A stretch of 33,511 nt of DNA from a virus: the IMG/VR virus record IMGVR_UViG_3300017987_000237, positions 1 through 33,511 of that record. The stretch is one strand, 5' to 3'. Below are positions 6,644-29,816 of this stretch, one piece after another (the first letter of the stretch is position 1; every line of letters begins with the position of its first letter). The position numbers and the translations under genes were made by a program. Below the pieces are notes generated by a model. The model searched no databases and was not told the origin of the DNA. It was given only the letters and a program-made list of their open reading frames with translations.

Positions 6644-9600
6644 CTACACTCCCTTAGACCTGAAGTAGTCGACAAGAGCCTCCCCTGCAGCCGCCCCGAC
6701 CACTTCCGCAGATCCCGTCTCACCTGAGACGTTGATATTGAGATCCAGCTGCCCGGAGCCAATCGAAAGCGAAGCCATGACCTCGTTGATTTTGTCGAGC
6801 GGAATGACAGCCTCGGGGACTCCTCCCTCGCCAACCATCGCCATCGTCGGAGACGATATGATACCACCCTGCGCCAGTTGAGGGTAGCCGCCTGCATCGT
6901 TTGACGCACCGGCTGCTTGGATTGCTGCAATCTCCCCTTCTGTCATGCCCCACGTCAGACCCTCGGTGTTCGCAAAGTCGAGGTAGTCGAGGTTCCCTAT
7001 GCGGCCCGCGTACCAGTTCATCCATTTGGCTTTCCAGCTCGGGTGCATATTGTTCTCGCGCATGTACGCATCCAAAGCCAGACGAACGTCGCGCCATTTG
7101 TCGCGGTCACTCTCCGCTGCGTTGAACGCCGCTTCAACTGACGATATTGGATAGTCCCACTCATACCGTGTTTCTGGATCCCACCCCGCCGCGATGGCAC
7201 GGTTGTAGTAGGTCGCGTAGTCTTCGGCAGTCATTTCGTTTCGAAACTTCTTGACATATTTCATAAGCTCGACATCGAGCCACTCTCGTGAGTGCTGCCC
7301 CTGCTCCTGTTGTGCTTCGAGAGCCGCACGAGCCCCGGCGAAAGTCCGGGCCACATCGGGGTCAAGAGCACCGCTTAGGGTCTGCGTCAGAACAGTGTTG
7401 ATCTCGCCAAACTGACCGCCAAGGTCTGCAATCGTCCACGCAGCCGAACCGACGGCCATTGAATTACCGAACGTGCTATCTCCACCCGTTCCTTGGCCTG
7501 TTACCAACTTCCAGAAATCCATTCCCTCATTTGCCACGTTTGAACCGCCGAGAGCCATCCTCAACGACTGCCAGATGTTGTATCCACGGTCACCCAACGC
7601 CTGAGCCGCAGAGCTGCTTGACCCCGCTGCGACAGCGGCCGATATTTCCTCCTGAGACGCTCCCATAATGTTGACGAGATCCGCAACCTGCAGCTGACCG
7701 GCACCACTCAACCCTGTGCTTCTTAGGGCGTCCTGCATGCCTTGTACCGTTTCGCCTTGGAGACCAACTAGTTCGTCGGGGGTCTTTCCGACAAACTCTT
7801 CCTCACCGAGTAGGCGTGCAAATCGTCTCGCCGCGTCGCCGGCTTCTTCCGCAAGCTCTTTCTGTCTCTTCACCGCGTCGTCCAGAGACGAGTTCTCGCC
7901 GAAGGCGTCGTCAACGTAGCTCCACAGCGTGTCGAAGATCCAGTCGAAGTAGCTGCCGATTCCTTCGCCGCTCATGAGCGACGTGAGGAGATTGCCAATG
8001 CCCTCTATGGCTTCGGCCCCCTGCTGTCCTAGCTCTTCCCAATCGTCAGTCAGCACACCGATCCCGTCTGACATCGACTCAACCAAATCGCCTATGGCGT
8101 ACTCACCATCCTCAGTCGCCTGATACCACACATTGACCATTCTTTCGGCGGCAAGATTGAACTCGGTCGTCTCTACTTTCGCCTTGAGAATCAGACCAAC
8201 TTCCTTGCTGACGGCGGTTGTCCACTCGTTCTTGATGTTGATCGACGCGGCCTTGTACCGATCCTCGATAGCCTTTACTTCCTCCTCGTTTTCGTCAGCC
8301 ATTTCGAGGGCATGGTCGCGCTCTGTTTTCAATAGAGACAGCTTGAATTCGTACTCGGCCCGGGCCATTTCCTTGCGCGTTTCCGACGCCTTAATAGCAG
8401 CGACAAGCCGCTGGTTGGCGCTGATATTTTCCGATTTTGCTACCTTGTCGTATGCTTCTACTCGTTCCTTGAGTGTGGCTTTCCTGAGTGAGTGAATGTC
8501 GGTGATTGTGTCTTTTTCCAGATCGTAGATCCGCTTAGTGCGGCGCTCCTCTTCGCGTGCGGCTTCCTTCTCTTCGCGCCGGCGCTGTTTCGCCAGTTCC
8601 TTGCGACGTTCCTCGTCCTCGGCCGCTTTCTTGATGTCACGCTCCGCAGCTGCCGCTCGTTCCTTTTGACGTTTGGCCTCTTCCTCCTCCGCTGCTGCGT
8701 CCTCGGCTTTCTTCTTCCGACGATTATCTTCGGTGTTCACGAGATCGTGAAGCACTACCAGCCGCTTGTTGATGGCGTTGATATTGATGGATGCAAGCTC
8801 GCGCTCTGCCTCGGAACCCTCCTTGAGTACACGCAGGTACTCCTTGCGCTTGGCCGTCAGCTCCTCGATCCATTTCGTGGCCTGACCGTAGCTCGCATCG
8901 GCGTCGGTCATGCGCCGCCGGCCGGGTGTCTCGTTCTCCAGTCTCTCCATCCAGTAACCGACATTCTCGAATGCATCGAGTACCGCAGTGAGCGGCTTGA
9001 GGATCATGGTATTGGCGATCGCCATGCCGGTAGTCGAGAACCACTGCCCAACCCGAGACCACCGCACCTGCAGGTCTTGTGCCATCTTGGCTGCAGCCTC
9101 GTCGGCCGCGCCTACCTTGTCCTCCATTTCCTCCATGATGTCGGCGAACTTAGACGCTCCGTTCCCGGTGAGCACCAGAGCCCCGGTGAGAGCACGCACA
9201 TTCGGGAACAGCTTGGCGAGAGCCTCCTCACTTCCGCCGGTCTTAACACGCAGCTCCTCCATGTATTCGGTGAAGCTGCCGGCCGCGGCAATACCCTTGC
9301 TTCCGAGTTCAATGTTGAGTGCTGCCGCGACTTCCTGAGCCTCTTTGGTGGGCTTCACCAGATTGGCAAACATGGCCCGTAGGGAGGTGCCAGCGACAGC
9401 CGCGTCCATACCAGTGAGGGTGAGGGTAGCCAACGCACCATTCATCTCATCGAAGGTCGCGCCGACCGCAGCCGCCATTGGGGCAACCTTACCGATAACC
9501 GGGCTGAGGTCGTCCATGGTGAGAACACCGCGCTTGATAGCGACGAAGAGGCTGTCCGTGATTTCCTTGAGTTGGCCCGACTCATACCCGAATGCGTTGT

Positions 9601-10066
9601 AGGCCGCGACCATAGCCTCGACCGACGTGGTGGTGTCAGTAGCACCAGCCATGGCAGCACGCGACGCCTCCTCCAGAAACATGAGGCTGTCCTTCGCATC
9701 AATGCCGGCGGATATGGTCTGGTAGAGAGCGCGAGCGAGGCCGCCTGACGTGTCGCCGTACTTCTTGGCGAGACTGACAACCCCGTCACCGAGCCGCTGC
9801 ATATTGACCTGCGACGTGTCAACGAGCGTCGATACCTGCGCCATTTCGTGATCGAGTTCGAGCTGACTCTGCGTCAGTTCCTTGGTGACGTTCGTCACGG
9901 TGCGGAGCGCCTGAACGATACTCCCGGCACCAACCAACCCGGCGGCAGTAGCCATAGCCTGTTTGCCGAACGAGTCTAGCCCGGTGGTGCCACGAGAAAT
10001 CGCACCCGAGAACTGACCATCGTTGAGTTCTAGCCGCCCACTGATTACACCTAGTTCGTCAGCCAT
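6644..10066 (-). CDS. Tail tape measure protein
   Basis: 1140 aa, the longest complete gene here, directly after the tail assembly chaperones. Residues ~70-350 resemble the TP901-type tape measure core (TVVDTS-like start, then GLARALYQTISAG, ALATLTLTGMDAAVAGTSLRAMFANL). Residues ~420-630 are a highly charged coiled coil with long runs of Glu, Lys and Arg. The C-terminus has the tape-measure signature GGIISSPTMAMVGEGG followed by PEAVIPLDK. The protein fills the tail tube and sets its length. By the usual rule of about 0.15 nm per residue the tail would be roughly 170 nm, which is an estimate. No lysozyme or peptidase domain is visible. The start overlaps the preceding chaperone frame by 8 bases. 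Confidence 0.95.
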   Translation of the reverse strand: MADELGVISGRLELNDGQFSGAISRGTTGLDSFGKQAMATAAGLVGAGSIVQALRTVTNVTKELTQSQLELDHEMAQVSTLVDTSQVNMQRLGDGVVSLAKKYGDTSGGLARALYQTISAGIDAKDSLMFLEEASRAAMAGATDTTTSVEAMVAAYNAFGYESGQLKEITDSLFVAIKRGVLTMDDLSPVIGKVAPMAAAVGATFDEMNGALATLTLTGMDAAVAGTSLRAMFANLVKPTKEAQEVAAALNIELGSKGIAAAGSFTEYMEELRVKTGGSEEALAKLFPNVRALTGALVLTGNGASKFADIMEEMEDKVGAADEAAAKMAQDLQVRWSRVGQWFSTTGMAIANTMILKPLTAVLDAFENVGYWMERLENETPGRRRMTDADASYGQATKWIEELTAKRKEYLRVLKEGSEAERELASININAINKRLVVLHDLVNTEDNRRKKKAEDAAAEEEEAKRQKERAAAAERDIKKAAEDEERRKELAKQRRREEKEAAREEERRTKRIYDLEKDTITDIHSLRKATLKERVEAYDKVAKSENISANQRLVAAIKASETRKEMARAEYEFKLSLLKTERDHALEMADENEEEVKAIEDRYKAASINIKNEWTTAVSKEVGLILKAKVETTEFNLAAERMVNVWYQATEDGEYAIGDLVESMSDGIGVLTDDWEELGQQGAEAIEGIGNLLTSLMSGEGIGSYFDWIFDTLWSYVDDAFGENSSLDDAVKRQKELAEEAGDAARRFARLLGEEEFVGKTPDELVGLQGETVQGMQDALRSTGLSGAGQLQVADLVNIMGASQEEISAAVAAGSSSSAAQALGDRGYNIWQSLRMALGGSNVANEGMDFWKLVTGQGTGGDSTFGNSMAVGSAAWTIADLGGQFGEINTVLTQTLSGALDPDVARTFAGARAALEAQQEQGQHSREWLDVELMKYVKKFRNEMTAEDYATYYNRAIAAGWDPETRYEWDYPISSVEAAFNAAESDRDKWRDVRLALDAYMRENNMHPSWKAKWMNWYAGRIGNLDYLDFANTEGLTWGMTEGEIAAIQAAGASNDAGGYPQLAQGGIISSPTMAMVGEGGVPEAVIPLDKINEVMASLSIGSGQLDLNINVSGETGSAEVVGAAAGEALVDYFRSKGV

Positions 10067-10334
10067 CGTTTTCCACCTTGAGGAATCCCCCGAGTTTGTC
10101 GGGGGTGACGAAATTCACATTCTCACCCTTTGGTCTGTTGTCCCGGTGCCACTTGTTGATGCTTTGCACGATCCATGCGTATTGAATCATCCACACGTCG
10201 AATGCAGGCATCAGCCGAACTTGTTCGGGAAGAAACCCAAGGGAGAGGAACCTCTCGTACATCTCCGCCTCACTCCAAGCTATTCGTCGTTCGACTCGTT
10301 CACTGACGTTTTCATCGCTTCGAGCGAGGCCCAC
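10059..10334 (-). CDS. Tail assembly chaperone T extension, made as a -1 frameshift fusion
   Basis: This 91-codon frame is in the -1 frame relative to the upstream chaperone gene and has no good ribosome binding site; its first possible start is a GTG inside the upstream gene. A slippery heptamer just before it (10337-10343) would join it to residue 136 of the upstream protein, giving a fusion of about 228 aa. This is the arrangement of lambda G/GT and most siphophages: the short and the fused forms coat and guide the tape measure during tail assembly. The sequence contains FLPEQVRLMPAFDVWMI, an aromatic-rich stretch typical of the T part. It overlaps the tape measure start. Confidence 0.85.
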   Translation of the reverse strand: MGLARSDENVSERVERRIAWSEAEMYERFLSLGFLPEQVRLMPAFDVWMIQYAWIVQSINKWHRDNRPKGENVNFVTPDKLGGFLKVENDG

Positions 10335-10744
10335 AAGTTTTTTAGGCTTGCGAAGTTGTGTCTTACCAAGTAGGCAAGGATCTCCGCCGCCTCGTTGACC
10401 TGCATCGTCGCAATGATCTCGGGTGTGAACCGCTTGTATGTGAGAGCCGCAAAGAGGTCTTGTACCACGCCGTGATTTCGTTGCAGCAGCAGTCGAGGAA
10501 CGATTTCGCCAATGGCTTTCTCGACGGCCTTGCTGGTCTTGTCCTGATAGGTGGCAAAGCTACGCGCCTTCTCGATGAAAGCAAAGGACGCCTGTTTGTC
10601 CTCAGCCATGACCCGCGCTATGACGTTCAGCACGTCGGGAGCGTCCTTGTAGAAAAGACGCGGCACCTCGACTCGAGTCTTGTCTGGCCCTACCTCGAAA
10701 ACGAAATCTTCCTTTACGTATGCGCGGAACGGTTCTGCGCTCAT
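10280..10744 (-). CDS. Tail assembly chaperone G
   Basis: 154 aa, ATG overlapping the glycosyltransferase stop (ATGA), so probably translationally coupled. It is a largely helical soluble protein with no catalytic motif, lying just before the tape measure gene. The end of the gene carries an A AAA AAC slippery site and overlaps a -1 frame. Position, size and frameshift signal together identify it as the G-type chaperone; the sequence alone (EVPRLFYKDAPDVLNVIARV) would not be enough. Not expected to remain in the mature virion. Confidence 0.85.
   Translation of the reverse strand: MSAEPFRAYVKEDFVFEVGPDKTRVEVPRLFYKDAPDVLNVIARVMAEDKQASFAFIEKARSFATYQDKTSKAVEKAIGEIVPRLLLQRNHGVVQDLFAALTYKRFTPEIIATMQVNEAAEILAYLVRHNFASLKNLWASLEAMKTSVNESNDE
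10337..10343 (-). promoter_or_regulatory. Programmed -1 ribosomal frameshift site (A AAA AAC)
   Basis: In the G chaperone frame the codons read CTA AAA AAC TTG, which places a canonical X XXY YYZ heptamer (A AAA AAC) in the right phase. After a -1 slip the next codons are CTT GTG GGC CTC and run straight into the T extension. Nine bases downstream the mRNA can form a short hairpin (TCGCT, loop CGA, AGCGA), a typical stimulator. The expected product is 136 residues of G plus 92 residues of T. Confidence 0.85.
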
Positions 10745-12009
10745 TGCCCCTTCTCCTTGGATAGTTCCCTACTCAGATTCTCAAAGTCACTTCTCATTCG
10801 CTCAAGTGTCCAGAACCGCGATACCTGCTCGTGAGCCATGAAGCCGACATCCTCAGCCGCAGCGCGATTCTTGTAGCACCACTCCATCCGGTTTTTCAGA
10901 TCCTCCACGTCGACAAATGCGTCGTGGCCGGGGTTTTCCTGAAACAGAGTGAGTACCTTGCGACCCGGCTTGTGATATAAGCCGGTCACGCGCTGGAGAG
11001 TCGCACATAGGTTGCGCAACCGTGCACCAACGGACTTCCAGAACGGAATTCTCGGGGGCGCTATCCCCGGAGGCATTAGCTTCACGACTCGCCGGCCGTC
11101 CGCCACGAATGACAGGAGTTTGGGCAAGAATCGGAACTGACGGAAGAGACCGCCAGCGTTGAACGCAATCCCACCAATCCCGATGGCGAGAAACAGATGA
11201 TTCCAGTGAACCGGGCTCCGCTTCAACGTGTATTTGAGCGGGATGCAGTACGGGCGCTGAACATACGGCATGCTCCAGTCGGTCACGAGAACCGGCTTCC
11301 CCATCGCCATTTGCTCAAGCGGAATCAGCCCGAAGCCTTCGCCATGTGTGGGGTTCAGGCAGCAATCCACTTCTCTGTAGAGGTCGATGAGTGCACCTCT
11401 CGACATATCCTTCTGGATGTACCGGACACCGAGAGTCGTTTCGAGATTCGGAATCTCCAACTCGGAATGCTCGTTTGGCCGCACCTTGACGACCAGCTTC
11501 GCGTCCGGCCCGAGCCGATCCTCAGTACGCAGCTCCTTGAACGCTCGCACCGCTATGTCGTAGCCCTTCCGCCCGTTGGGGTCGACGGCAACACCCTGCC
11601 ACATGAACACGTATTCGTCGGTACTTTTCGTCTTCGGCACCTTCTTGATACGCTCGTCGTCGTACCCGAGTGATAGTACGTGCACCGGGGCCGTGACTCC
11701 CGACTTTTCGAACGCCCAACGGCACCACTCGGACGGCACGACAACGACATCCGCGTGGTTGTTCAGGAACCGCACCCACCTCGACGGAACACGGTCGCTC
11801 TCGTACATGGTGTAGACCATGAGCGGCAGTCCGTCGGATTTCAGCTCTCGCGGTTTGTGGTACCACGGTAGGTTGCAATACACTCGGTAGTCGGCACCTT
11901 CGGGGGAGTCCGTCAGATGCTCACCGAGGGCCTTCTTGAACAAGGCCACGGCATGGTTGTAGCCAACCCAATCTATCTGCCCTGCTGAATCGGGAAAGTA
12001 CAGACGCAT
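10741..12009 (-). CDS. GT-B fold glycosyltransferase (GT4-like) inside the tail operon
   Basis: 422 aa. The C-terminal Rossmann half carries THGEGFGLIPLEQMAMG at residues 221-237, with the E-x7-E motif (E224, E232) of retaining GT4 enzymes, preceded by KLVVKVRPN and followed by PVLVTD. The N-terminal half has VVVVPSEWCRWAF, usual for the acceptor domain. The last part of the fold (VDVEDLKNRMEWCYKN) is present. It is separated from the active-site region by an unusual ~105-residue insert (about 252-358) that is basic and has a hydrophobic stretch near 271-287. It lies between the tail tube gene and the tail chaperones and is coupled to the latter by an ATGA overlap. Glycosylation of tail or capsid protein is the simplest inferred role; the sugar donor is unknown. 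Confidence 0.85.
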   Translation of the reverse strand: MRLYFPDSAGQIDWVGYNHAVALFKKALGEHLTDSPEGADYRVYCNLPWYHKPRELKSDGLPLMVYTMYESDRVPSRWVRFLNNHADVVVVPSEWCRWAFEKSGVTAPVHVLSLGYDDERIKKVPKTKSTDEYVFMWQGVAVDPNGRKGYDIAVRAFKELRTEDRLGPDAKLVVKVRPNEHSELEIPNLETTLGVRYIQKDMSRGALIDLYREVDCCLNPTHGEGFGLIPLEQMAMGKPVLVTDWSMPYVQRPYCIPLKYTLKRSPVHWNHLFLAIGIGGIAFNAGGLFRQFRFLPKLLSFVADGRRVVKLMPPGIAPPRIPFWKSVGARLRNLCATLQRVTGLYHKPGRKVLTLFQENPGHDAFVDVEDLKNRMEWCYKNRAAAEDVGFMAHEQVSRFWTLERMRSDFENLSRELSKEKGQ

Positions 12010-12026: not shown

Positions 12027-12554
12027 TTATTCCTTCGTCGTGTCGACGATTGAACCGAAGCTGCCGTCGCTATCGAGCAGACACTCGAAAGAGACGGGAA
12101 CCGTCGTCTTGACACCACGGTTGAGGGTGGTCTGTGAGGAACCGACACGAACCGCCTTCTCGATTGTGAAGGTACGGAATTTCGTGCGGTCGGTCGCCGA
12201 CATCCCCTGAAATATCAGACCCACTTCGCGCATCCTCTGCGCCGGGGTGAGATCCAGAGTCTTCGACGATTCGCCGGAAAGCACAGACGAAGAGTGGAGA
12301 CCCCACGCGATGGCGAGATTCTCCAAAGTGGCTTCCTCGAACTCGGTCGAGATACGGAAGCGCACTCCCGTAATCTCAGAATCTACCGGCCCGAGTGCCC
12401 ACTCCGATTCTACCCACGCTTCGGTCTGTGACCACTCCACACGGACGCCCCCCTGATATGCGCCGATGTCAACGCCGTCAACCGTGACCTGTCCCGACCC
12501 CTGTAGGATCTGACTGACCGTCACATTGACATTGTCGTTTACTGCACCAGCCAT
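12027..12554 (-). CDS. Major tail (tube) protein
   Basis: 175 aa beta-rich protein in the standard position between the tail terminator and the tail chaperones. The N-terminus (VTVDGVDIGAYQGGVRVEWS) resembles tail tube subunits that state a domain as 'gamma-position, identity, reference values'. The rest alternates short strands (GVRFRISTEFEEATLENLAIAWG), as in the tube-protein family shared with type VI secretion Hcp. It would form stacked hexameric rings around the tape measure. Only a glycosyltransferase gene separates it from the chaperones, which is not the usual arrangement. Identity rests on position and fold-like pattern. Confidence 0.75.
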   Translation of the reverse strand: MAGAVNDNVNVTVSQILQGSGQVTVDGVDIGAYQGGVRVEWSQTEAWVESEWALGPVDSEITGVRFRISTEFEEATLENLAIAWGLHSSSVLSGESSKTLDLTPAQRMREVGLIFQGMSATDRTKFRTFTIEKAVRVGSSQTTLNRGVKTTVPVSFECLLDSDGSFGSIVDTTKE

Positions 12555-12569
12555 ACGGGTACTCCTTGG

Positions 12570-13013
12570 TTAGCCGTTCATTCCTGCTTCGACACGGAAC
12601 CGTGCGACACCAACCGACTCTCGCGGGTGGGCGAGATCCACGAACGCCGGGATGATGCCGAGGCAGAGCAACGGCATACCCGCGCCACCTGTGATACTCA
12701 GAAACTCCTCGCTCAAGGCATTAACGCTTTGCTTGACGATGCGCTCCGAACGCTGGTCGATCTGGCCGTTGTCGAGGAGCCGACACCGGGCGGTGGCGCG
12801 GCACTCTCCAACGTACAGGTTTCTATCGGTCAGCGACATCGGGAGCAACGTCACCACTATGTACGGTAGGTCGTCCTGTTTGTCGTTCGGACAGCGCCCT
12901 ACATAGACTTTGGTCGTGCTGTCGAGGTGTTGGGAGTTCTGGAGCGTCGTATCAGCGTCTAGGAGCGCCTTTACCGCTTCCAACACATCGTCAGGGTTGA
13001 GAGTATGTACCAT
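12570..13013 (-). CDS. Tail terminator / tail completion protein
   Basis: 147 aa with a good ribosome binding site (AAGGAT) before ATG 13013. The start (NPDDVLEAVKALLDAD) followed by a small alpha/beta body (LPYIVVTLLPMSLTDRNLY) is what is seen in the family that caps the growing tail tube and joins it to the neck (lambda gpU, DUF3168-like). It sits between the neck gp10-like gene and the tail tube gene, the expected place. Sequence similarity to the family is only general, so position carries much of the weight. Confidence 0.65.
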   Translation of the reverse strand: MVHTLNPDDVLEAVKALLDADTTLQNSQHLDSTTKVYVGRCPNDKQDDLPYIVVTLLPMSLTDRNLYVGECRATARCRLLDNGQIDQRSERIVKQSVNALSEEFLSITGGAGMPLLCLGIIPAFVDLAHPRESVGVARFRVEAGMNG

Positions 13014-13016
13014 GGT

Positions 13017-13475
13017 CTATCCTTGCACAGCCGCTCTCATACGGCTTATGAACAGGTCCCGGACGCGGCCAAGCATAGCCGACCACGCACCGCCTATGAC
13101 GAAATGTCCTTCCGTGAACTCGACGTACACCGCGTACTCCATACCCGCGAACACGACAACCGAGATGGTGTTCCCTTTGCCACTGACCGGGGCATGGTAC
13201 GTGGTCTGTTTCACTGACTTCCCGCTTTCGTCCTCTTTCGTCTCCGAAGTGGATGTCACGTCTGCGGCTTTACCGCGGAACGCTGGCAGATACCCTATGC
13301 TGTTGCGGAGGTTCCCGGTGCGGTCGGTGAAGCCTGACGGGTCGGTCTTCGCCATGGTCACGATATCTGAGGCAATGCTATTCAGCACACGCATGGCAAG
13401 CTCCTGCTTTGCCTGCCCGACGGCTGTCAGGCGTGCCTTCATCGCGGCCACGTCTGCCTGATTCAGTTTAAGCAT
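13017..13475 (-). CDS. HK97 gp10-like neck / tail completion protein
   Basis: 152 aa. It has the hallmarks of the HK97 gp10 family: a helical N-terminus, then DRTGNLRNSIGY around residue 50, and near the C-terminus YAVYVEFTEG followed by an Arg-rich helix. These proteins bridge the head connector and the tail terminator. The gene overlaps the upstream beta-helix gene by 8 bases and lies just before the tail terminator gene. Confidence 0.75.
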   Translation of the reverse strand: MLKLNQADVAAMKARLTAVGQAKQELAMRVLNSIASDIVTMAKTDPSGFTDRTGNLRNSIGYLPAFRGKAADVTSTSETKEDESGKSVKQTTYHAPVSGKGNTISVVVFAGMEYAVYVEFTEGHFVIGGAWSAMLGRVRDLFISRMRAAVQG

Positions 13476-15306
13476 CCTCGACCTTCCGCACGACGATCTC
13501 CTGATGGTCGTCGTAGGTTTCCTCGTACTGGACCACGAACTCGCCCTCGTTGTTGATTGCCCTGATGCCGTACTCGATACCCGACATCTTCTCAGCCGGG
13601 AACAGACGGTACTCCAGAGCCCGACTACCGCGCCCCTCCTGCTCTGAGCGGCTGGCGCTCTGCAGGTCCTTCCGGCAATAGACGTCCTGATACAACCGGG
13701 TGTACGTTATGCTCCTGCTCGACCCGGAGGCCAGCGAGTAGAAGCTCCACTCGTTGTCGTCCGTGGGAGCGGTCATGGTGGAGCTGGCGTAGGTCACAGC
13801 ATCCGTGAGCGTGTCCTGAGAACCGCCATCTGTGACCAACTTCACGTCGTAGGCCCCTGCGACCTGAGCCGGGGCTGAGAACTGCACATACGTGTCCGTC
13901 CAGGCGGTCGCGGTCATTGCTACCAGAGTCCCGTCGGCGTCTTCCAGATAGACCTCTCCGGTCCCTTGGTCGTCGCCTGCGTTCCGGCAGTGAACCGTCA
14001 CCGTGGTCCCACCGTCAACGCTGACCGAGGTAGGCTGTACCCGCGCAATAGCGACGGGAGTCACCGCTCCGATCAGCACAGCGTTCGGAGCGGTGTGGGT
14101 GTTCCCATTGGCGTCGGTCACAACCACGTCCTGATTTGTTCCGGCTTCGAGGCCGACCGGAACTGCTACCTGAATTTCCGACACATCCTGAGAGCCGATA
14201 GTGGCAGAGATTCCGCCGACTGTCACGGTGCTGGCCCCGTCGAACATTCCTGTGATGGTCAGGGTGTCGCCTGCGTTCGCCTCTGCCGGGGAAACGTCCG
14301 AGATACGCGGGTCAATCACTGCCGGGATACCCATGTGTAGCCAGTTGGCGACCGACTCGCGGACACCGAGATTGACCAGCATTTCCATGCGTTCCGCGTT
14401 AACGAAGTCGTCTGCGTCGAAGTCCTCATATCCATCAGTGACAAGATCAACAATGGTGCTGAAGTAGTCGTTCGGCGCGTTCGTCTGATACTGTGCGTCA
14501 TTCCCGTACAGGCTCAACCCAAGTACTTCAAACCCGTATGTCGAGCCTGATTCAAGGGCCGCAGTGTTGTTCGTGGCCTTGCACCCGATGAGGAAGCAAT
14601 AACCACCCGAGTACCCGTACTGGTTGTTGTCGGAGACGCAGTGAATCAGGCGACCGTGGCTGGTGCCATTGTCGTATCCAGAGTTCCCGTTCCTGAAGAA
14701 AGCGCACCCATAGAAAATCGTGATATACGAGGAATAGCAGCCATCAAGAGCGTTGTCATAGAAATTGCAGAACACCCACAGCCCGTAGGTACACGCCCTC
14801 TGAACCCCATACTTGCGATTGTCGTGGAAGTCGCAACACACGTACAGGCCAGCGGTCGAGTTGTTAGGAGTCTCGACCAGTCCGTGGTAGGCGTTGTCCA
14901 TCTCACAATTGAACATCCTGAAATGGTCCCCGCTATCCTCCAGCTTCATAGCGTAGCCAGAACCCGAGGTATTCGTAAACCGGATATTCTCGAATGATAT
15001 GTGTTGAATGTCAACTTCGACTATGTTAATTGCCGCTCCGCCAGCATCCAGAACCAGCCGCGACATATCAGCCACACCAGCCGCGTTGCACCCGATAATC
15101 CGAATCTTGGACAGGTACGTCCCGGCGATAGTATCAACACGAAGAGGAGCCGTGACCGTGATCGCTCCGCCCCCGCTCTTTCGAATGTAGAGAGGGCCGG
15201 TTTCTTTTGTCACGGTGTCAAAGGCTGTCTGGACGTCCTCGATTGCGTCGGTCCAGCTTCCGCCGTTGTTCGCACCGCTTGCGTCGGGGTCGCAGTAAAG
15301 GGCCAT
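13468..15306 (-). CDS. Parallel beta-helix protein with two IPT/TIG-like domains, in the neck module
   Basis: 612 aa. Residues ~60-275 form short repeating turns rich in Asn, Asp, Gly, Tyr and Cys (FENIRFTN, FNCEMDN, VCCDFHDN, VFCNFYDN, YGCAFFRNG, IHCVSDNN, LIGCKATNN), the pattern of a right-handed parallel beta-helix like pectate lyases and phage tailspikes. Residues ~335-412 and ~420-507 are two IPT/TIG-like immunoglobulin folds (ISDVSPAEANAGDTLTITG; VQPTSVSVDGGTTVTV). The last ~95 residues are a separate alpha/beta domain. No catalytic site is evident. The gene lies inside the head-tail connector genes. A neck or head surface appendage is inferred; a structural neck function plus binding is also possible. 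Confidence 0.7.
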   Translation of the reverse strand: MALYCDPDASGANNGGSWTDAIEDVQTAFDTVTKETGPLYIRKSGGGAITVTAPLRVDTIAGTYLSKIRIIGCNAAGVADMSRLVLDAGGAAINIVEVDIQHISFENIRFTNTSGSGYAMKLEDSGDHFRMFNCEMDNAYHGLVETPNNSTAGLYVCCDFHDNRKYGVQRACTYGLWVFCNFYDNALDGCYSSYITIFYGCAFFRNGNSGYDNGTSHGRLIHCVSDNNQYGYSGGYCFLIGCKATNNTAALESGSTYGFEVLGLSLYGNDAQYQTNAPNDYFSTIVDLVTDGYEDFDADDFVNAERMEMLVNLGVRESVANWLHMGIPAVIDPRISDVSPAEANAGDTLTITGMFDGASTVTVGGISATIGSQDVSEIQVAVPVGLEAGTNQDVVVTDANGNTHTAPNAVLIGAVTPVAIARVQPTSVSVDGGTTVTVHCRNAGDDQGTGEVYLEDADGTLVAMTATAWTDTYVQFSAPAQVAGAYDVKLVTDGGSQDTLTDAVTYASSTMTAPTDDNEWSFYSLASGSSRSITYTRLYQDVYCRKDLQSASRSEQEGRGSRALEYRLFPAEKMSGIEYGIRAINNEGEFVVQYEETYDDHQEIVVRKVEDA

Positions 15307-17933: not shown

Positions 17934-19121
17934 TTACGACGTGGCGATCAGTCCAAGGGCTTCGAGCTCGTCCAGAAGTGTGTTGAACGGAGCCTTCTGG
18001 TCGGTTGCGCTTGTGTCGGTCATGTCCGCGATGTGCGCCTGCTGCACAACTGGAGTCGCACCGAAGAACCCGAGTTTCTGATTAGCCGCAGTGCCAATCA
18101 TGGAGCCAGTGCTCGTGTTGAGCACGATGTCAACGCTGTCTGCCAGTGTCACGAGACCGGAAGCGAAACGAATGACCTCACCCGGCGTAGCCGAACCGTC
18201 AGGCGTACACAGGATCACGATACGACCGGGCATGTCGTTTGTTGCACCCGGCGTCCCGTTCACCTCACCGACGATAGCCGCTGCCGTGTCGAAGGTGGTG
18301 CCGTTGCTACCCTTGAAGTTGATGCCCCCAAGGTCGTCATTGTCCTGCACGATTGCCGCAGCACGCGCCTTTTTGAAGCTGATGGTTGAGTCAACAGCAT
18401 CTTCTGTGACGCTGGTGATAGCCATGTCTGCGGCAGTGAACTCAGCAACCGTTGCCACAGCCTCAGCACCGTCAGGGGAAATCTTGACAGATATCTTTCC
18501 GGGCATGTCGCCATCACCCGGGGTTCCACCGACCTCGGCGAGGATCTGAGCTGCCTCGGCATAGGAATCGCCGTCGTAGCCCTTGAAGCTGATCATACCG
18601 AGATCGTCACCGCTCTGCACGACCGCAGCGGCACGAATCTTCTTCATGGTGAGCACTGCGCTCGTAGCGTCTGCATCGTCCTCGAACATTTCGATGTCGT
18701 TGAACGACATGTCTCCGCCAACATCCATCCCGCCGGCGTTGGCTCCGCCAATGTCGAAGCGGATGATCGAGGCGCTGCGTGCGAACCCGACAACCTGCTG
18801 GATTGTCGCGGTGGGTGCGGTCGTGGTAGCTTCACCAGCGGTCGCACTGAGGTAGACCTTCGCGCCGACGGTCATACCCGAGTAACCACGGATGTCTGCC
18901 ACCTTGACCGGGCTCACCATCTGGTACTGGAGAGCTGTCTGGACGATAACACCCTGCGCATCTTTGCGAGTGGTGTCACCAACTGCGACAGAATCCGCTT
19001 TCTGCCACTGCCCGTTGGAATCCATGTAGACAAGGTCTCCAACAGCCAGCGCGACTCCGGCCTTCCCTGACGGAAGAATATTCGACGCTTCCGTGCTGTA
19101 TCGGTCGGTGTAGTACGGCAT
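17934..19121 (-). CDS. Head decoration / head fibre protein with duplicated fibre repeats
   Basis: 395 aa. Residues 1-125 resemble a small capsid decoration protein (AVGDLVYMDSNGQWQKADS, then GAKVYLSATAGEA). Residues 160-219 and 250-309 are two copies of one unit with a spacing of exactly 90 residues (KK.RAAA.VQ..DDLG.I.FKG). Such units are common in trimeric phage fibres. The C-terminus contains KLGFFGATPVVQQ and ADMTDTSATDQ, wording typical of head fibre ends. The order scaffold, this gene, capsid gene fits a capsid decoration protein. Likely role: a fibre standing on the capsid surface. Confidence 0.8.
   Translation of the reverse strand: MPYYTDRYSTEASNILPSGKAGVALAVGDLVYMDSNGQWQKADSVAVGDTTRKDAQGVIVQTALQYQMVSPVKVADIRGYSGMTVGAKVYLSATAGEATTTAPTATIQQVVGFARSASIIRFDIGGANAGGMDVGGDMSFNDIEMFEDDADATSAVLTMKKIRAAAVVQSGDDLGMISFKGYDGDSYAEAAQILAEVGGTPGDGDMPGKISVKISPDGAEAVATVAEFTAADMAITSVTEDAVDSTISFKKARAAAIVQDNDDLGGINFKGSNGTTFDTAAAIVGEVNGTPGATNDMPGRIVILCTPDGSATPGEVIRFASGLVTLADSVDIVLNTSTGSMIGTAANQKLGFFGATPVVQQAHIADMTDTSATDQKAPFNTLLDELEALGLIATS
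18195..18374 (-). repeat. Head-fibre repeat, copy 2
   Basis: Codes residues 250-309, the second copy of the unit. The two copies differ at many residues, so the duplication is not recent. Confidence 0.8.
18465..18644 (-). repeat. Head-fibre repeat, copy 1
   Basis: Codes residues 160-219 of the head fibre protein, the first of two copies offset by 270 bases. Shared pattern: KK(I/A)RAAA(V/I)VQ, DDLG, FKG, AA.I..EV.GTPG, MPG.I and PDG. Confidence 0.8.
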
Positions 19122-23456: not shown

Positions 23457-24765
23457 TGGTCAGCTCCTGTTGCGCATTTTCCGTGTGGACATGGTACCGG
23501 AGTGCGTCGCACGCATGGTCTTTGTCCTTTACCGGCTTGTCTTTGTCGGCCCACATATAGCCGGGAATCTCCTCTTGTAGACACGTGGGCGCGTTGATTT
23601 CTTCGAGGAGCGGGTCGCTGTCCATGAGTCCATACCAGAAGCCCTCGCGCTCGCTCCAATCGTTGTTGAAAATGTACAGCATCGGCAGGCCGTCGTCGCC
23701 GTCGAGAAACAGCTCTGCCACATCCTGAATGCCTGAGAGCACGGTTTTGTTTGCTGGCTCCGTCTTCCTCCAGTCCTGCTCGAACTGCGCACGGTTCTCA
23801 GCGTCGTGGTCAGCGACTATCTCCTCCAGCTGCTCGTTGCACTTCTCGGTGACGCCGCGCACCACCGGGATAACGTCACGCACGAGTCGGTGCGTCATGT
23901 AGAACTGTCTGTAAACGTACCGCTTCCCGGTGCCGGGGTCAATGGCTATCCACAGCATCACGAATGGATCCACGTACCCGAAGTCCACAGCCGCGTACTT
24001 GGGCCAGTTGGCGGGGATGGGGAACGGCTCTATTAGATGCTTCTCGGGTTCGTACTGATCCCATACCATACCCTCGAACGCTGTCCACTTTGAGAGCACG
24101 TACCGCTCGTAGTAGCGCGTTCCTTTCCACTTGTCGAGCCGCTTGAAATACGACGCCGGGTTGTGGAAGTTCTCGTAGCTGGTCGCCGCGAAGTATCGGT
24201 AGTCCGGGTCGCGCTCCTTGTCGCTTTTCTTCTCGTTGATGGGGAATAGCGTGTGCTGGTAGCTTCCGGGCGCACCGGGGTTGGTGGAGTAGAGCTGGAA
24301 GGGAACCTCAAGATGCTGGCCTCTGAGGCGGCTTTCCATCATTTTCAGCTCGTCTTCTTCGAACTCGATACTCTCGTCTACCAGATTCACGTCGAACCAG
24401 TATGAGCCCTTGCCCTGAATGTTGTCCATCCCGAGCCAATCCAGACGACTCCCGTTCTTCATGATTGTGAGCATGCTGCTGCGGTTGTAGTAGCCGAGGT
24501 ACTCCGTGGGGCACGCCTGCTCGATGAACAGTCGGTGAGTGGTACCGCGTAGGCTCACCATCGTTTTTCGCCATACGCCTATCTCGATTCCGGGGACGGC
24601 ACACGCCAGATTGAACGCCAGCTCCGCGAGGTATCGTGACTTCCCGCAGCCGAAGCCACCGCAGTACATGAGGTTGGGTATCTGCTCCCGGAGCACAGTG
24701 TTTAAGGCTGCCTGAGTGGGCAGCCATTCGCATTTGTACTTCCCGTCTATGACAGTGCGGCTCAT
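23416..24765 (-). CDS. terL: Terminase large subunit (packaging ATPase and nuclease)
   Basis: 449 aa, ATG overlapping the Lar-like stop. Walker A GGFGCGKS lies at 36-43, Walker B LVDE at 128-131, and coupling motif STN at 160-162. The C-terminal RNase H-like nuclease has D261 (AVDFG), a second acidic motif VADHDAENR at 317-325, and an acidic D near 416-420 (KDKDHACDALRY). All catalytic elements appear intact. It packs DNA through the portal and cuts concatemers. The packaging mode (cos or headful) cannot be decided from this sequence. Confidence 0.95.
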   Translation of the reverse strand: MSRTVIDGKYKCEWLPTQAALNTVLREQIPNLMYCGGFGCGKSRYLAELAFNLACAVPGIEIGVWRKTMVSLRGTTHRLFIEQACPTEYLGYYNRSSMLTIMKNGSRLDWLGMDNIQGKGSYWFDVNLVDESIEFEEDELKMMESRLRGQHLEVPFQLYSTNPGAPGSYQHTLFPINEKKSDKERDPDYRYFAATSYENFHNPASYFKRLDKWKGTRYYERYVLSKWTAFEGMVWDQYEPEKHLIEPFPIPANWPKYAAVDFGYVDPFVMLWIAIDPGTGKRYVYRQFYMTHRLVRDVIPVVRGVTEKCNEQLEEIVADHDAENRAQFEQDWRKTEPANKTVLSGIQDVAELFLDGDDGLPMLYIFNNDWSEREGFWYGLMDSDPLLEEINAPTCLQEEIPGYMWADKDKPVKDKDHACDALRYHVHTENAQQELTSGQIRTSRPFSRR

Positions 24766-25136
24766 TGTCGTTTCCGGGGGCAGTTCTGTTCACGGCAAGG
24801 GTGAATGTATCTGCTCTCTGTGGTCGGCACGCACATTGGCTCCGGGTAGTCCGGGTGTCGCTTGTGGAGAACGCAATGTTTGGAGAACATATCGAATGAC
24901 TCGCCGGGGTTGTCCGGCACGAAAGTAACGGTTGCCCTTCCCTGCTGAACCGGCGCTCTCGCGTTCCACGCCAAGATCGCCAGCTCACGGCTCGACAGCA
25001 TCGGGCCGGTTGCGTAGCAGCTGTGACACCACACTCCCCATTTGCCAACGCCCTTGTGCTCCGTGATATACGTCTCGGCTCCACCACAGAACGGACAGGG
25101 GTTCGCGTCGATTTTCGTACCGGGTTCGTATGGCAT
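24762..25136 (-). CDS. Lar-like restriction alleviation / zinc-finger protein
   Basis: 124 aa from ATG 25136, just after the radical SAM gene and preceded by GGGAG. Residues 13-60 show the Lar family pattern: NPCPFCGG (C14, C17), WCHSCYATGP (C37, C40), then LAILAWNAR. Rac prophage Lar protects DNA by stimulating host modification. The second half (61-124) is not part of classical Lar and carries four more Cys (C88, C102, C114, C119), possibly a second metal site. Function in anti-restriction is inferred; similar small proteins are common in phages without proof of role. Confidence 0.7.
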   Translation of the reverse strand: MPYEPGTKIDANPCPFCGGAETYITEHKGVGKWGVWCHSCYATGPMLSSRELAILAWNARAPVQQGRATVTFVPDNPGESFDMFSKHCVLHKRHPDYPEPMCVPTTESRYIHPCREQNCPRKRQ

Positions 25137-25138
25137 GA

Positions 25139-25888
25139 CTACTCCCTTGCTGCTTCCGCGAGGTCGTCTTTGATTTTGTACGCGACTCCATGACGGATAC
25201 AGCGGTTCGTCGCCCGGAGCAGGTAGTCGGCCCAATCCACCTTCCGCTCGATCGCGCCGTGATGGTTCAGCTTCCCGAGCCTGAACTCGTCGGTATACTC
25301 CGCGGCGTAGTCGATGCATTCGAGTGACTCCTCGGGATCTATGACCGGCTCGATGCTCACCCACGTAGGTATGCCGAGCGACTTCGCCTTCGAGAGAGCA
25401 GCCACCCGGTCGGATGGGCGCGAGGCTCCCGGTTCCCATTTCTGGTACATGGTCGGATGCATGTGCGTGAGCGTAACGCCGAATCTGCAGTTGGGGCGCT
25501 GGAGTAAAGGCATGTCCGCCATTGCCGCGAGGGTGTCGCCCTTGGTGAGAACCGCGACGCCGATCTCGTGGTCACGCATGAGCATGAGCGCCTGTGTGGT
25601 CACTCGGTCAAGCATGGAGTGGTAATGGGTAGGGTAGGGGTCGCAACCGAAGCAGAAGAGTACCTGCCGTGTGTCGTGCCGCAGCTGGCGGCAGTCTTGA
25701 GCCAGCCGGCCAATGATGTCCTTCCGGGCGACGGCAGGCTGCTTGAACGCCTCGGGTTTCTTGTGCATGGCACCGGGGACATAGCAGTAGGTGCATGCGT
25801 GTGGACAGGTCTCGTAGAGGTTGACCGCCAGCTCCGCGTATTCACGCGCCCGGCCCTTCGGTTCGTATACCACAGACAGTCTCGACAT
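25139..25888 (-). CDS. Radical SAM enzyme (SPL/DUF5131-like)
   Basis: 249 aa from ATG 25888, chosen for AAGGAGG upstream. Residues 28-35 give CPHACTYC, the C-x3-C-x2-C triad that binds the 4Fe-4S cluster of radical SAM enzymes. A FGCDPYP motif near 90, GVAVLTKGDT, and GIPTWVSIEPVIDPEES follow, as in the spore-photoproduct-lyase-like and phage Gp37/Gp68-like groups. Such enzymes start reactions with a 5'-deoxyadenosyl radical. The substrate is not known; DNA repair or nucleic-acid base modification are reasonable guesses. The gene lies in the accessory block between the terminase genes. Confidence 0.85.
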   Translation of the reverse strand: MSRLSVVYEPKGRAREYAELAVNLYETCPHACTYCYVPGAMHKKPEAFKQPAVARKDIIGRLAQDCRQLRHDTRQVLFCFGCDPYPTHYHSMLDRVTTQALMLMRDHEIGVAVLTKGDTLAAMADMPLLQRPNCRFGVTLTHMHPTMYQKWEPGASRPSDRVAALSKAKSLGIPTWVSIEPVIDPEESLECIDYAAEYTDEFRLGKLNHHGAIERKVDWADYLLRATNRCIRHGVAYKIKDDLAEAARE

Positions 25889-28540: not shown

Positions 28541-29074
28541 TCAGTGCCTCTTCAGTCCCCACATGTACAGGTCGTGGTGGGCGTCGTTCACTTCCCAACC
28601 GAAACGACGGAACGAAGCACAGAACCCCTCCAGAGAGAGTATATCATTCGGGGTTCTGTTCTCGTAGTATCCGGGTGTGGGGCTCATATTCCCGCCCTCG
28701 GTTGTTGGGGTACCGTGTTCCGCTCTCCCGGTGGTCGCGCATGTGAGAAGGAAGAACCCGCCGGGCTTGAGCAGGTACACCATGTTATCAACAGTCGCGC
28801 CCCAATGCGGATCGTGCTCCAGAGTCTCGCAACTGATTACAACGTCGTACCTTATGTCGTCTCCGGGGTCGAATTCGTCTCCCCTGCACACAATATCCAC
28901 ACCCGGCCCCTCTGATACGTCGACTCCGGTATACTCAGCATCGGGTGAGAAGGCGCTGCGCACGGTGCCGTTGATGTCGAGGCTTCCTATCTCAAGCACA
29001 CGCTCTGCCCCGGAGAAGTGCGCCGGCATGAATTCACGGACTCTCGCAAGGAACTCAATCTGTTCCAGATGCAT
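28541..29074 (-). CDS. Class I SAM-dependent methyltransferase
   Basis: 177 aa from ATG 29074, chosen for GGAGG six bases upstream; the longer frame starts inside the ParB gene. Motif I VLEIGSLDI at 27-35, acidic motif YTGVDVS around D52, and YDVVISCETLEHD at 76-88 followed by LLKPGGFFLLTC form the class I methyltransferase (Methyltransf_11) core. It lacks DPPY/NPPY catalytic motifs, so it is not an obvious DNA amino-methylase; a small molecule, a sugar or a modified base may be the target. It is at the end of the ParB/methyltransferase trio. Confidence 0.8.
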   Translation of the reverse strand: MHLEQIEFLARVREFMPAHFSGAERVLEIGSLDINGTVRSAFSPDAEYTGVDVSEGPGVDIVCRGDEFDPGDDIRYDVVISCETLEHDPHWGATVDNMVYLLKPGGFFLLTCATTGRAEHGTPTTEGGNMSPTPGYYENRTPNDILSLEGFCASFRRFGWEVNDAHHDLYMWGLKRH

Positions 29075-29816
29075 CCTCAGCCTCCGATTCTGCATCCTGA
29101 GCTGCGTAGTGCGCGGTGACTATCTCGCACATCCGTAGCAGAATGCTATTGACGTTTCGTATCCCGCCCTTGGTGCTGGTGAGGCGCATGGCCTTGATGA
29201 ACGGCTCGAATGCTTCGATGGACGCGAGACAGTTCTTCTCGGCTTCCATGAACTCGAACGTCCGCTCTACCTTGTCCATGTTCGCGGGGAGGAACACAAA
29301 CTGCATCACCTTGAAGTCATACTGCAGGTTGATGTGGTCGAGCTTGGCGCTTTCCAGTGAGGTGTATACCCCGAGGCTCTCCGGGTCGATTCCGGTCTCC
29401 GCCTGCAGCTTGAGGTTGTCGATTTCCTCGAACAGCTCCCGGAGCAGATTCTTGTCGTCCTCTCCGCGTATGGCGTTGTGGGCGAGCTGCTTGGTGACTA
29501 CCTGAGCCTTGGTCAGCTGATTGGTCTCTACCAGCGCGAAGATATGAGTCTTGTCTGCCATCCGTGACGCTCTGACCCGGTGATGGCCGCTGATGATTTC
29601 GAGCTGTTCCTTCTTGGCGTTGAACATGCAGAAGGGCAGCTGCTCCAGCCGGCCGTCGCGCTTGATGGTCTTCATGAGCAGATCGAAATGCTTCTTGCTC
29701 ATGACGTTGGCGTTGCGATCCTGCTCGCGCAGGCTGTCGATATTGACCCGCCACAACTCGAGTCCGTTCTCCAGTTCTGCTACCTTCTCATAGTCCTTCT
29801 CACTTGGCTTCGCCAC
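29055..29816 (-). CDS. ParB-like protein (ParB N-terminal / sulfiredoxin domain)
   Basis: 253 aa from GTG 29816 with GGAGG upstream, overlapping the previous gene's end by 17 bases. Residues ~20-110 show the ParB/Srx domain with the box GHHRVRAS at 77-84, preceded by LLMKTIKRDGRLEQLP. The C-terminal part is helical with LRMCEIVTAHYA and an acidic tail; I see no partition partner (ParA) or parS clue. Phage proteins of this kind occur beside DNA methylases and act as nucleases or CTP/nucleotide enzymes in modification. Here it lies between two methyltransferase-like genes. Confidence 0.85.
   Translation of the reverse strand: MAKPSEKDYEKVAELENGLELWRVNIDSLREQDRNANVMSKKHFDLLMKTIKRDGRLEQLPFCMFNAKKEQLEIISGHHRVRASRMADKTHIFALVETNQLTKAQVVTKQLAHNAIRGEDDKNLLRELFEEIDNLKLQAETGIDPESLGVYTSLESAKLDHINLQYDFKVMQFVFLPANMDKVERTFEFMEAEKNCLASIEAFEPFIKAMRLTSTKGGIRNVNSILLRMCEIVTAHYAAQDAESEAEDASGTD

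What the first reader, a model, noticed from the sequence alone, without database searches (positions are those of the whole stretch)
10741..12009. Glycosyltransferase gene embedded between tail tube and tail chaperone genes
Seen: E224/E232 motif and a complete GT-B outline; coupled to the tail chaperone by ATGA. Known: some phages, notably of actinobacteria, glycosylate capsid or tail proteins with a GT4-type enzyme placed in the structural operon, possibly to hide virions from antibodies. Also unusual: a basic insert of about 105 residues with a hydrophobic patch in the C-terminal half. Inference: tail tube or capsid is glycosylated and the insert may bind the virion substrate or membrane.
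Basis: partly seen in the sequence, partly recalled or inferred. Interest (0 to 1): 0.55.

Follow-up and report, generated by a model that had tools for sequence, protein, structure and literature searches.

The report
Tail-operon sugar transferase with candidate target
Six related but uncultured viruses of microbes carry a sugar-attaching enzyme gene wedged among the genes for the tail tube and its assembly chaperone, and the neighbouring tube protein has a serine-rich loop that looks like the place where the sugars go; that can be tested with mass spectrometry.

Summary
Window 10741-12009 (minus strand) encodes a 422-aa GT-B/GT4-type glycosyltransferase (E224 and E232 invariant in 6 of 6 homologues). 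It lies between a major tail (tube) protein and a tail assembly chaperone, the latter identified by an A_AAA_AAY -1 slippery site kept in 6 of 6 viruses.

Five further viral contigs carry full-length relatives (36-53% identical), each directly after the tube gene; in one a Methyltransf_24 gene separates GT and chaperone. The insert is real (about 88 residues, absent from two Streptomyces-phage GTs) and basic in 6 of 6; its hydrophobic patch is not conserved.

New lead: the adjacent tube protein has a 14-residue loop with 6-9 serines in all six; its five invariant residues are all Ser, in mixed TCN/AGY codons. Sixteen tube relatives from isolated phages have 0-4 Ser there, but total Ser+Thr overlaps, and one phage with a GT elsewhere has no Ser.

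Best reading: O-glycosylation of the tail tube at this loop (about 0.5; about 0.7 for some virion protein). Virion glycosylation is known; position, insert and predicted acceptor make this a new variant. No glycan, donor or activity was shown.

The parts
10741..12009 (-). GT4-type (GT-B) glycosyltransferase, 422 aa
   Evidence: PF00534 3e-12, PF13692 9e-12, phrog_2170 4.8e-26; model Z 26.5 to 3oy2; full-length relatives in 5 other viral contigs
11314..11340 (-). EX7E motif, E224 to E232, donor-site signature of retaining GT-B enzymes
   Evidence: both Glu invariant in 6 of 6; the meaning of the motif is recalled
10933..11196 (-). lineage-specific basic insert, residues 272-359, in the C-terminal half
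   Evidence: gap at this place in both Stigma GTs; net charge +7 to +19 over residues 263-357 and equivalents in 6 of 6; no meaningful Pfam or PDB sequence match; modelled at low confidence except the helix around 321-340
12027..12554 (-). major tail (tail tube) protein, 175 aa
   Evidence: phrog_2175 1.1e-17 and phrog_476 'major tail protein' 0.0052; relatives annotated major tail protein in Streptomyces phages
12258..12299 (-). Ser-rich loop of the tail tube protein (residues 86-99), proposed acceptor
   Evidence: S89, S90, S93, S96 and S97 invariant in 6 of 6; no 14-mer of any of the six proteins is richer in S/T; mixed TCN/AGY codons
10280..10744 (-). tail assembly chaperone, first ORF, 154 aa; start overlaps the GT stop (ATGA)
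   Evidence: position before the tape measure gene; no family hit; slippery site conserved
10337..10343 (-). slippery heptamer A_AAA_AAC for -1 frameshifting into the ORF that ends at 10059
   Evidence: in phase, -1 extension of 92 aa; A6C or A6T equivalent in all six (place)
6644..10066 (-). tape measure protein, 1140 aa
   Evidence: PF10145 3.2e-30 and 19 PHROG families, 17 of them named tape measure

Best explanation
The gene encodes a retaining GT4-type glycosyltransferase made together with the tail parts, which attaches one or a few sugars to the hydroxyls of a serine-rich loop on the major tail protein, in the host cytoplasm before or while the tail tube assembles. Shown by sequence: GT-B-type enzyme with intact EX7E motif; fixed place directly after the tube gene in six divergent viruses; tight or overlapping gene junctions; a Ser-rich tube loop in which the only invariant residues are serines; a lineage-specific basic insert. 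Inferred: that the enzyme is active and retaining, that the acceptor is the tube loop, that the basic insert (net +7 to +19) docks the acidic tube subunit (net -1 to -9), and that a host nucleotide sugar is the donor. In one relative a Methyltransf_24 gene between GT and chaperone could methylate the sugar. The glycan would coat the tail surface.
For: Directly after the tube gene in 6 of 6 records, with gaps of -1 to 47 nt from tube to GT and -8 to +1 nt from GT to the next gene. GT and tube identities correlate, r = 0.95 over 15 pairs: long residence, not a recent moron. The tube loop has 6, 6, 6, 6, 9 and 9 Ser in 14 residues, and no 14-mer of these proteins is richer in S/T; 5 of 5 invariant loop positions are Ser (post hoc hypergeometric P 1.2e-4). 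Four of the five invariant Ser use both TCN and AGY codons across the six, and the 9-Ser runs mix them, so this is not a codon repeat (read by eye from the codons). OscarSo, Wyvern and Isperia, without a detected PF00534 or phrog_2170 gene, have 0 Ser and 1-3 Thr in 17 loop residues. Methyltransf_24 (8.9e-19) sits between GT and chaperone in L004. Each of the six records shows one PF00534 match only, this gene.
Against: No activity, donor or glycan is shown. Total Ser+Thr does not separate the groups cleanly: eight Streptomyces phages with a related GT elsewhere have 5-9 of 14, and one of them, Karimac, has no Ser at all; Zuko and KimJongPhill, with at most weak GT hits, have 5 of 12; three Rhodococcus phages with a GT have 5/24, 5/24 and 7/32. 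The groups are phylogenetically clustered and the loop was chosen after seeing it. The loop could be a flexible linker; its exposure is unknown because the tube model failed (pLDDT 41.5). A passage on mycobacteriophages places the glycans at C-termini, not in an internal loop. The charge match of insert and tube is weak evidence: all 16 control tube proteins, most from phages without this insert as far as known, are acidic too.
Confidence: 0.5

Rival explanations
1. The GT glycosylates another virion protein (capsid, or the TIG/tail-fibre-like proteins in the window) and lies in the tail operon only for late expression; the Ser-rich tube loop is an unrelated flexible linker.
For: In mycobacteriophages capsid as well as tail tube are reported glycosylated (passages). 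The window encodes candidate surface proteins: TIG-domain protein 13468-15306, tail-fibre-like 17934-19121.
Against: The GT lies directly after the tube gene in 6 of 6 and beside the chaperone in 5 of 6, not beside the capsid gene in the window. The Ser invariance in the tube loop would then be a coincidence.
Confidence: 0.22
2. The GT modifies a host lipid, teichoic-acid or cell-wall precursor (superinfection exclusion or receptor masking); the basic insert binds acidic membrane lipid.
For: Weak NCBIfam similarity to glycolipid synthases (IagA/BgsA in 6 of 6, best 9.7e-6; every row for the window is far below its cut-off). The insert is basic, with a predicted helix whose hydrophobic moment exceeds shuffles in window and L001 (P 0.048 and 0.024).
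Against: Hydrophobic patch seen only in the window; helix moment not clearly above shuffles in the other four (P 0.078-0.342). The place inside the tail module would be unexplained. Late expression is unhelpful for excluding superinfection (inference).
Confidence: 0.15
3. The GT glucosylates hydroxymethylated phage DNA; the basic insert binds DNA.
For: Phage GTs that modify DNA with glycans are known (a passage and a title in a reference list). The insert is strongly basic.
Against: A thymidylate synthase/hydroxymethylase family gene (PF00303) was found in 0 of 6 records, while 9 of 14 control genomes rang. TET/JBP (PF12851) was found in 0 of 6, but no control rang, so that is inconclusive. 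All six may be fragments. Late tail-operon placement does not fit replication-linked modification (inference).
Confidence: 0.05
4. Cargo gene parked in the operon with no virion role, or an inactive enzyme.
For: No experiment exists; phage morons are common (recalled).
Against: Both Glu of EX7E and full-length frames in 6 of 6, at identities down to 36%, always after the tube gene.
Confidence: 0.05

Closest known systems
Virion-glycosylating glycosyltransferases of mycobacteriophages (Che8 and others; Freeman et al. 2023, paper not held; known here through passages in PMC11256854, PMC12619734, PMC11600133)
   Same: Phage-encoded GTs linked to glycans on capsid and tail tube; in three cluster O phages an O-methyltransferase gene lies beside the GTs (passage), as Methyltransf_24 does in L004.
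   Different: There the GT genes lie near the 3' end of the genome (Maravista) or as three tandem genes (cluster O), and glycans are reported at C-termini. Here a single GT sits directly after the tube gene, has a basic insert, and an internal Ser loop is the candidate. No mycobacteriophage appears by organism name among 114 phage records matched by tblastn at 1e-5.
phrog_2170 glycosyltransferases of Streptomyces and Rhodococcus phages (Stanwilliamsviridae such as Stigma, Coruscant)
   Same: Nearest isolated-phage relatives (best hits about 30% identity over residues 7-265). Phages of this group also carry related major tail proteins; all 11 Streptomyces and Rhodococcus tube-bearing records other than Zuko and KimJongPhill that were checked have a strong phrog_2170 gene.
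   Different: 327-332 aa in Stigma, no insert; genes away from the tail operon in those looked at (e.g. Coruscant GT match at 20.6-21.5 kb, tube gene at 34.5 kb). Second Glu of EX7E is Gln in both Stigma GTs.
3oy2, glycosyltransferase B736L of chlorella virus NY-2A
   Same: Best solved-structure match by VIA-align (Z 26.5, 319 residues, 16% identity), GT-B fold.
   Different: 392 residues in the aligned chain; virus of a eukaryotic alga; a shared fold does not show a shared acceptor.
TarM and SdgB (GT-B enzymes of staphylococci)
   Same: GT-B fold (7ec1, 7qh9; 7qd7, 4x7r); SdgB acts on Ser-Asp repeats (recalled).
   Different: Their extra domain lies elsewhere in the chain (recalled); no sequence match of the insert to any PDB chain.

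Membership tests
GT4-type GT-B glycosyltransferase (PF00534 / PF13692) | Match above the curated family cut-off | tested here: met
   46.8 bits against 26.4 and 45.9 against 27; all six records over the PF00534 cut-off
GT4-type GT-B glycosyltransferase (PF00534 / PF13692) | EX7E motif | tested here: met
   E224 and E232 invariant in 6 of 6
GT4-type GT-B glycosyltransferase (PF00534 / PF13692) | Two-Rossmann GT-B fold over the whole chain | tested here: met
   Z 26.5, model residues 1-418; model pTM 0.74 from 5 sequences
GT4-type GT-B glycosyltransferase (PF00534 / PF13692) | Retaining transfer from a nucleotide sugar | not testable with these tools
   needs enzyme assay
Virion-glycosylating phage GT (Che8 kind) | Glycan on a virion protein that depends on the gene | not testable with these tools
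   needs mass spectrometry and gene deletion
Virion-glycosylating phage GT (Che8 kind) | Sequence kinship to the tested mycobacteriophage GTs | tested here: inconclusive
   no Mycobacterium phage by first name among 114 records at 1e-5; the Che8 enzymes were not fetched and compared directly
Virion-glycosylating phage GT (Che8 kind) | Ser/Thr-rich exposed acceptor stretch on capsid or tube | tested here: inconclusive
   Ser-rich tube loop in 6 of 6; exposure unknown, tube model pLDDT 41.5
Phage DNA glycosyltransferase | Hydroxymethyl-base pathway genes (PF00303 hydroxymethylase or TET/JBP) in the same genome | tested here: inconclusive
   0 of 6 for PF00303; 0 of 6 for PF12851 with silent control; records may be fragments
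Tail assembly chaperone (G/GT kind), for gene 10280-10744 | -1 frameshift site near the 3' end with an overlapping second ORF, before the tape measure gene | tested here: met
   in-phase A_AAA_AAY in 6 of 6; extension 83-96 aa in five, frame runs off the record in L001; tape measure in the window
Anti-phage defence (PF20706 'GT4-conflict', PADLOC) | Match to a defence-system model | tested here: inconclusive
   PF20706 8.9e-11 (41.8 bits, cut-off 26), weaker than the generic GT4 models PF00534 and PF13692; PADLOC 0 of 6

The most novel reading that the evidence does not exclude
A dedicated tail-tube glycosyltransferase: an enzyme made with the tail proteins that decorates a Ser-rich loop on every tube subunit before assembly, recruited through its own basic insert, so that the whole tail shaft is sugar-coated; enzyme and acceptor loop have stayed together as a pair through deep divergence of this virus lineage.
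Probability: 0.42. Interest if true: 0.65.

Novelty: new variant of a known kind. Interest (0 to 1): 0.5.

Why it matters
Phage GT genes are common but their acceptors are rarely known (recalled). Here genome position points to one structural protein and sequence conservation to one short loop, so the acceptor question becomes a single mass-spectrometry test. If true, it extends virion glycosylation to an uncultured tailed-virus lineage with a distinct enzyme architecture, and offers an enzyme and acceptor pair for studying how tail glycans affect assembly, stability or recognition.

Tried and rejected
Tail tube structure prediction: pLDDT 41.5, unusable, so the loop's exposure could not be shown; no fold search was run with it. 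Sequence search of the tube alignments against the PDB: one alignment gave three chains of unrelated proteins (best E 0.04), the other none. PADLOC: nothing in 6 of 6. Membrane insertion through the hydrophobic patch: rejected, as not conserved. Slippage-prone Ser repeat: rejected, codons are mixed.

Genome contigs: the one scan found only two partial GT relatives, in a Conexibacter chromosome and a Verrucomicrobia MAG; they were not used further. Further viral scans with L004, L003 and L006 GTs, a six-sequence tube alignment, and L006 and L002 tube proteins returned only contigs already known; the scan is pattern-based, so absence of tube relatives without a GT is not shown. Among isolated phages, tblastn at E 0.1 with the L003 tube found nothing and with the L006 tube only OscarSo, in two records.

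Controls for the loop are a hand-picked 16 of the listed hits: the five phages other than duplicates (OscarSo, Wyvern, Isperia, Zuko, KimJongPhill, with NiceHouse as a sixth) and ten chosen, whose full lists (89 and 134 records) were not shown. Alignment A1 lost the first Met of the window protein and was replaced by A2 and A4. The structure model was made from five sequences, before L006 was added. Literature: searches, of open-licence papers only, listed no title or abstract start that reports this GT position or a Ser-rich tube-loop acceptor; full texts were not read, only passages of three papers. Freeman et al. 2023 is not held.

Full report
What is there. The window is a virus record of 33,511 bases and may be a fragment. 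ORF 10741-12009 on the minus strand (422 aa) is a glycosyltransferase: PF00534 3e-12, PF13692 9e-12, phrog_2170 4.8e-26. A model from five homologues (pLDDT 78.5, pTM 0.74) has the GT-B fold over its whole length (best 3oy2, Z 26.5, 319 residues). E224 and E232 are invariant in 6 of 6.

Neighbourhood. On the minus strand the order is tail-terminator-like gene (12570-13013, weak hit 0.0051), tube protein (12027-12554), GT, chaperone (10280-10744), tape measure (6644-10066). The tube protein hits phrog_2175 'protein with Ig domain' (1.1e-17); relatives found by tblastn (E 0.01) in 89 phage records, all Streptomyces phages, are in part annotated 'major tail protein'. The chaperone has no family hit, but an in-phase A_AAA_AAC lies 20 codons before its stop and gives a 92-aa -1 extension. 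An A6C or A6T equivalent is present in 6 of 6 viruses, with extensions of 83-96 aa in five and a frame that runs off the record in L001. Gene junctions are tight: tube to GT -1 to 47 nt, GT to next gene -8 to +1 nt (for L006 the listed TTG start was used).

Relatives. Two scans of the viral contigs found five contigs with full-length relatives: L001 53%, L002 47%, L003 46%, L006 39%, L004 36% identity. With the window, 6 of 6 have a 174-177-aa tube protein immediately before the GT. In 5 of 6 the chaperone follows directly. In L004 a Methyltransf_24 gene (PF13578, 8.9e-19) intervenes, and the gene with the slippery site comes next. A large ORF follows the chaperone in L002, L003 and L004 (967, 1020 and 1147 aa; its family was not tested there), while the L001 and L006 loci end before that point. 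GT and tube identities correlate across 15 pairs (r = 0.95); this shows long shared descent, not interaction. Each of the six records has one PF00534 match, this gene.

The slot without a GT. In 14 of 16 isolated-phage regions fetched around related tube genes, an annotated tail assembly chaperone follows the tube gene directly. BillNye has a hypothetical protein there and Byblos is unannotated. So the GT is an addition to a standard order.

The insert. Aligned with the two Stigma GTs, the six proteins have an extra stretch at window residues 272-359 (88 residues). Over residues 263-357 and equivalents the net charge is +7 to +19 in 6 of 6, with mean pairwise identity 0.27, against 0.49-0.50 in the N-terminal and catalytic parts and 0.35 in the C-terminal part. 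Within 263-357 only S265, G280, N284, P296 and N333 are invariant. The hydrophobic patch is peculiar to the window (Kyte-Doolittle-19 1.58 against 0.32-0.77). The insert was modelled with low confidence (ten-residue means 50-64) except around residues 321-340 (82-83), and has no meaningful sequence match in Pfam or PDB.

A candidate acceptor. Following the stretch ENLAIAWG, the tube protein has a 14-residue loop (window residues 86-99) with 6, 6, 6, 6, 9 and 9 Ser (S+T 7, 7, 8, 7, 10, 10) in window, L001, L002, L003, L004 and L006. No 14-mer of these proteins is richer in S/T. Of 31 invariant positions 7 are Ser, and all 5 invariant positions in the loop are Ser (post hoc hypergeometric P 1.2e-4). 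Ser codons mix TCN and AGY, so the runs are kept at protein level. 'Loop' is an inference from sequence; the tube model failed.

Controls, including results against. Sixteen tube relatives from isolated phages were read and their whole records searched for PF00534 and phrog_2170. No GT detected: OscarSo 2/17, Wyvern 1/17, Isperia 3/17 S+T, 0 Ser each. At most weak hits (PF00534 19.2 and 21.7 bits, below cut-off; phrog_2170 none and 0.0023): Zuko 5/12, KimJongPhill 5/12, 1 Ser each. GT elsewhere in the genome (phrog_2170 E below 1e-50, 11 phages): eight Streptomyces phages 5-9 of 14 (Coruscant 8, Braelyn 6, Stigma 9, Wakanda 8, BillNye 8, Byblos 7, Evy 7, Karimac 5), and Rhodococcus NiceHouse 5/24, Trina 5/24, Francesca 7/32. 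Karimac has a GT but no Ser in the loop. Ser count separates the GT-adjacent six (6-9) from the other 16 (0-4), but total S+T overlaps, the samples are related, and the loop was picked after it was seen. It is a lead with partial support, not proof.

Function. Best reading: O-glycosylation of the tube loop by an enzyme made with the tail proteins, the basic insert helping to hold the acidic tube subunit (net -1 to -9 in the six, though all 16 control tube proteins are acidic too). The methyltransferase in L004 could cap the sugar; an O-methyltransferase beside GTs is also described in cluster O mycobacteriophages (passage in PMC11600133). Rivals are another virion protein (0.22), host lipid or wall precursor (0.15), phage DNA (0.05; PF00303 found in 0 of 6; TET test inconclusive), and no function (0.05).

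Known and new. Glycans on capsid and tail tube of mycobacteriophages are reported (passages in PMC12619734, PMC11256854, PMC11600133; the primary paper is not held). New here, as far as the searches show, are the fixed position beside the tube gene, the basic insert, and a predicted acceptor loop. The host of these viruses is unknown; GC of the six sequences held runs from 38 to 58%.

Noticed in passing
L004:7245-7790: Methyltransf_24 gene inserted between the GT and the tail chaperone, overlapping the GT stop (ATGA); perhaps sugar O-methylation. L003's record has a Methyltransf_24 match far from the GT, L002's one below cut-off.
   Followed up: partly
window 13468-15306; L004:2190-5390: The window has a 612-aa protein with two TIG-domain stretches just upstream of the HK97-gp10-like gene. 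L004 has, directly upstream of the tube gene, a 1066-aa protein with a neck-passage-like/GDSL region and a C-terminal tail-terminator-like match.
   Followed up: partly
window 29800-31221: Fusion of a DAM-like phage domain (PF22555, 1.7e-33) with a phage GNAT-like domain (PF22559, 3.3e-12).
   Followed up: no
window 24762-25439: Lar-like restriction alleviation domain (PF14354, 1.4e-11) in the ORF directly upstream of the terminase large subunit gene.
   Followed up: no
window 28541-29095: Another methyltransferase (Methyltransf_23, 1.1e-8), away from the GT.
   Followed up: no
window 17934-19121: Tail-fibre-like protein (phrog_18345, 1.5e-31) between the major head gene and the scaffold-like gene, an odd place for a tail fibre.
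   Followed up: no
L016:4919-6897: Two tandem GTs of Streptomyces phage Stigma have Gln in place of the second Glu of the EX7E motif.
   Followed up: no
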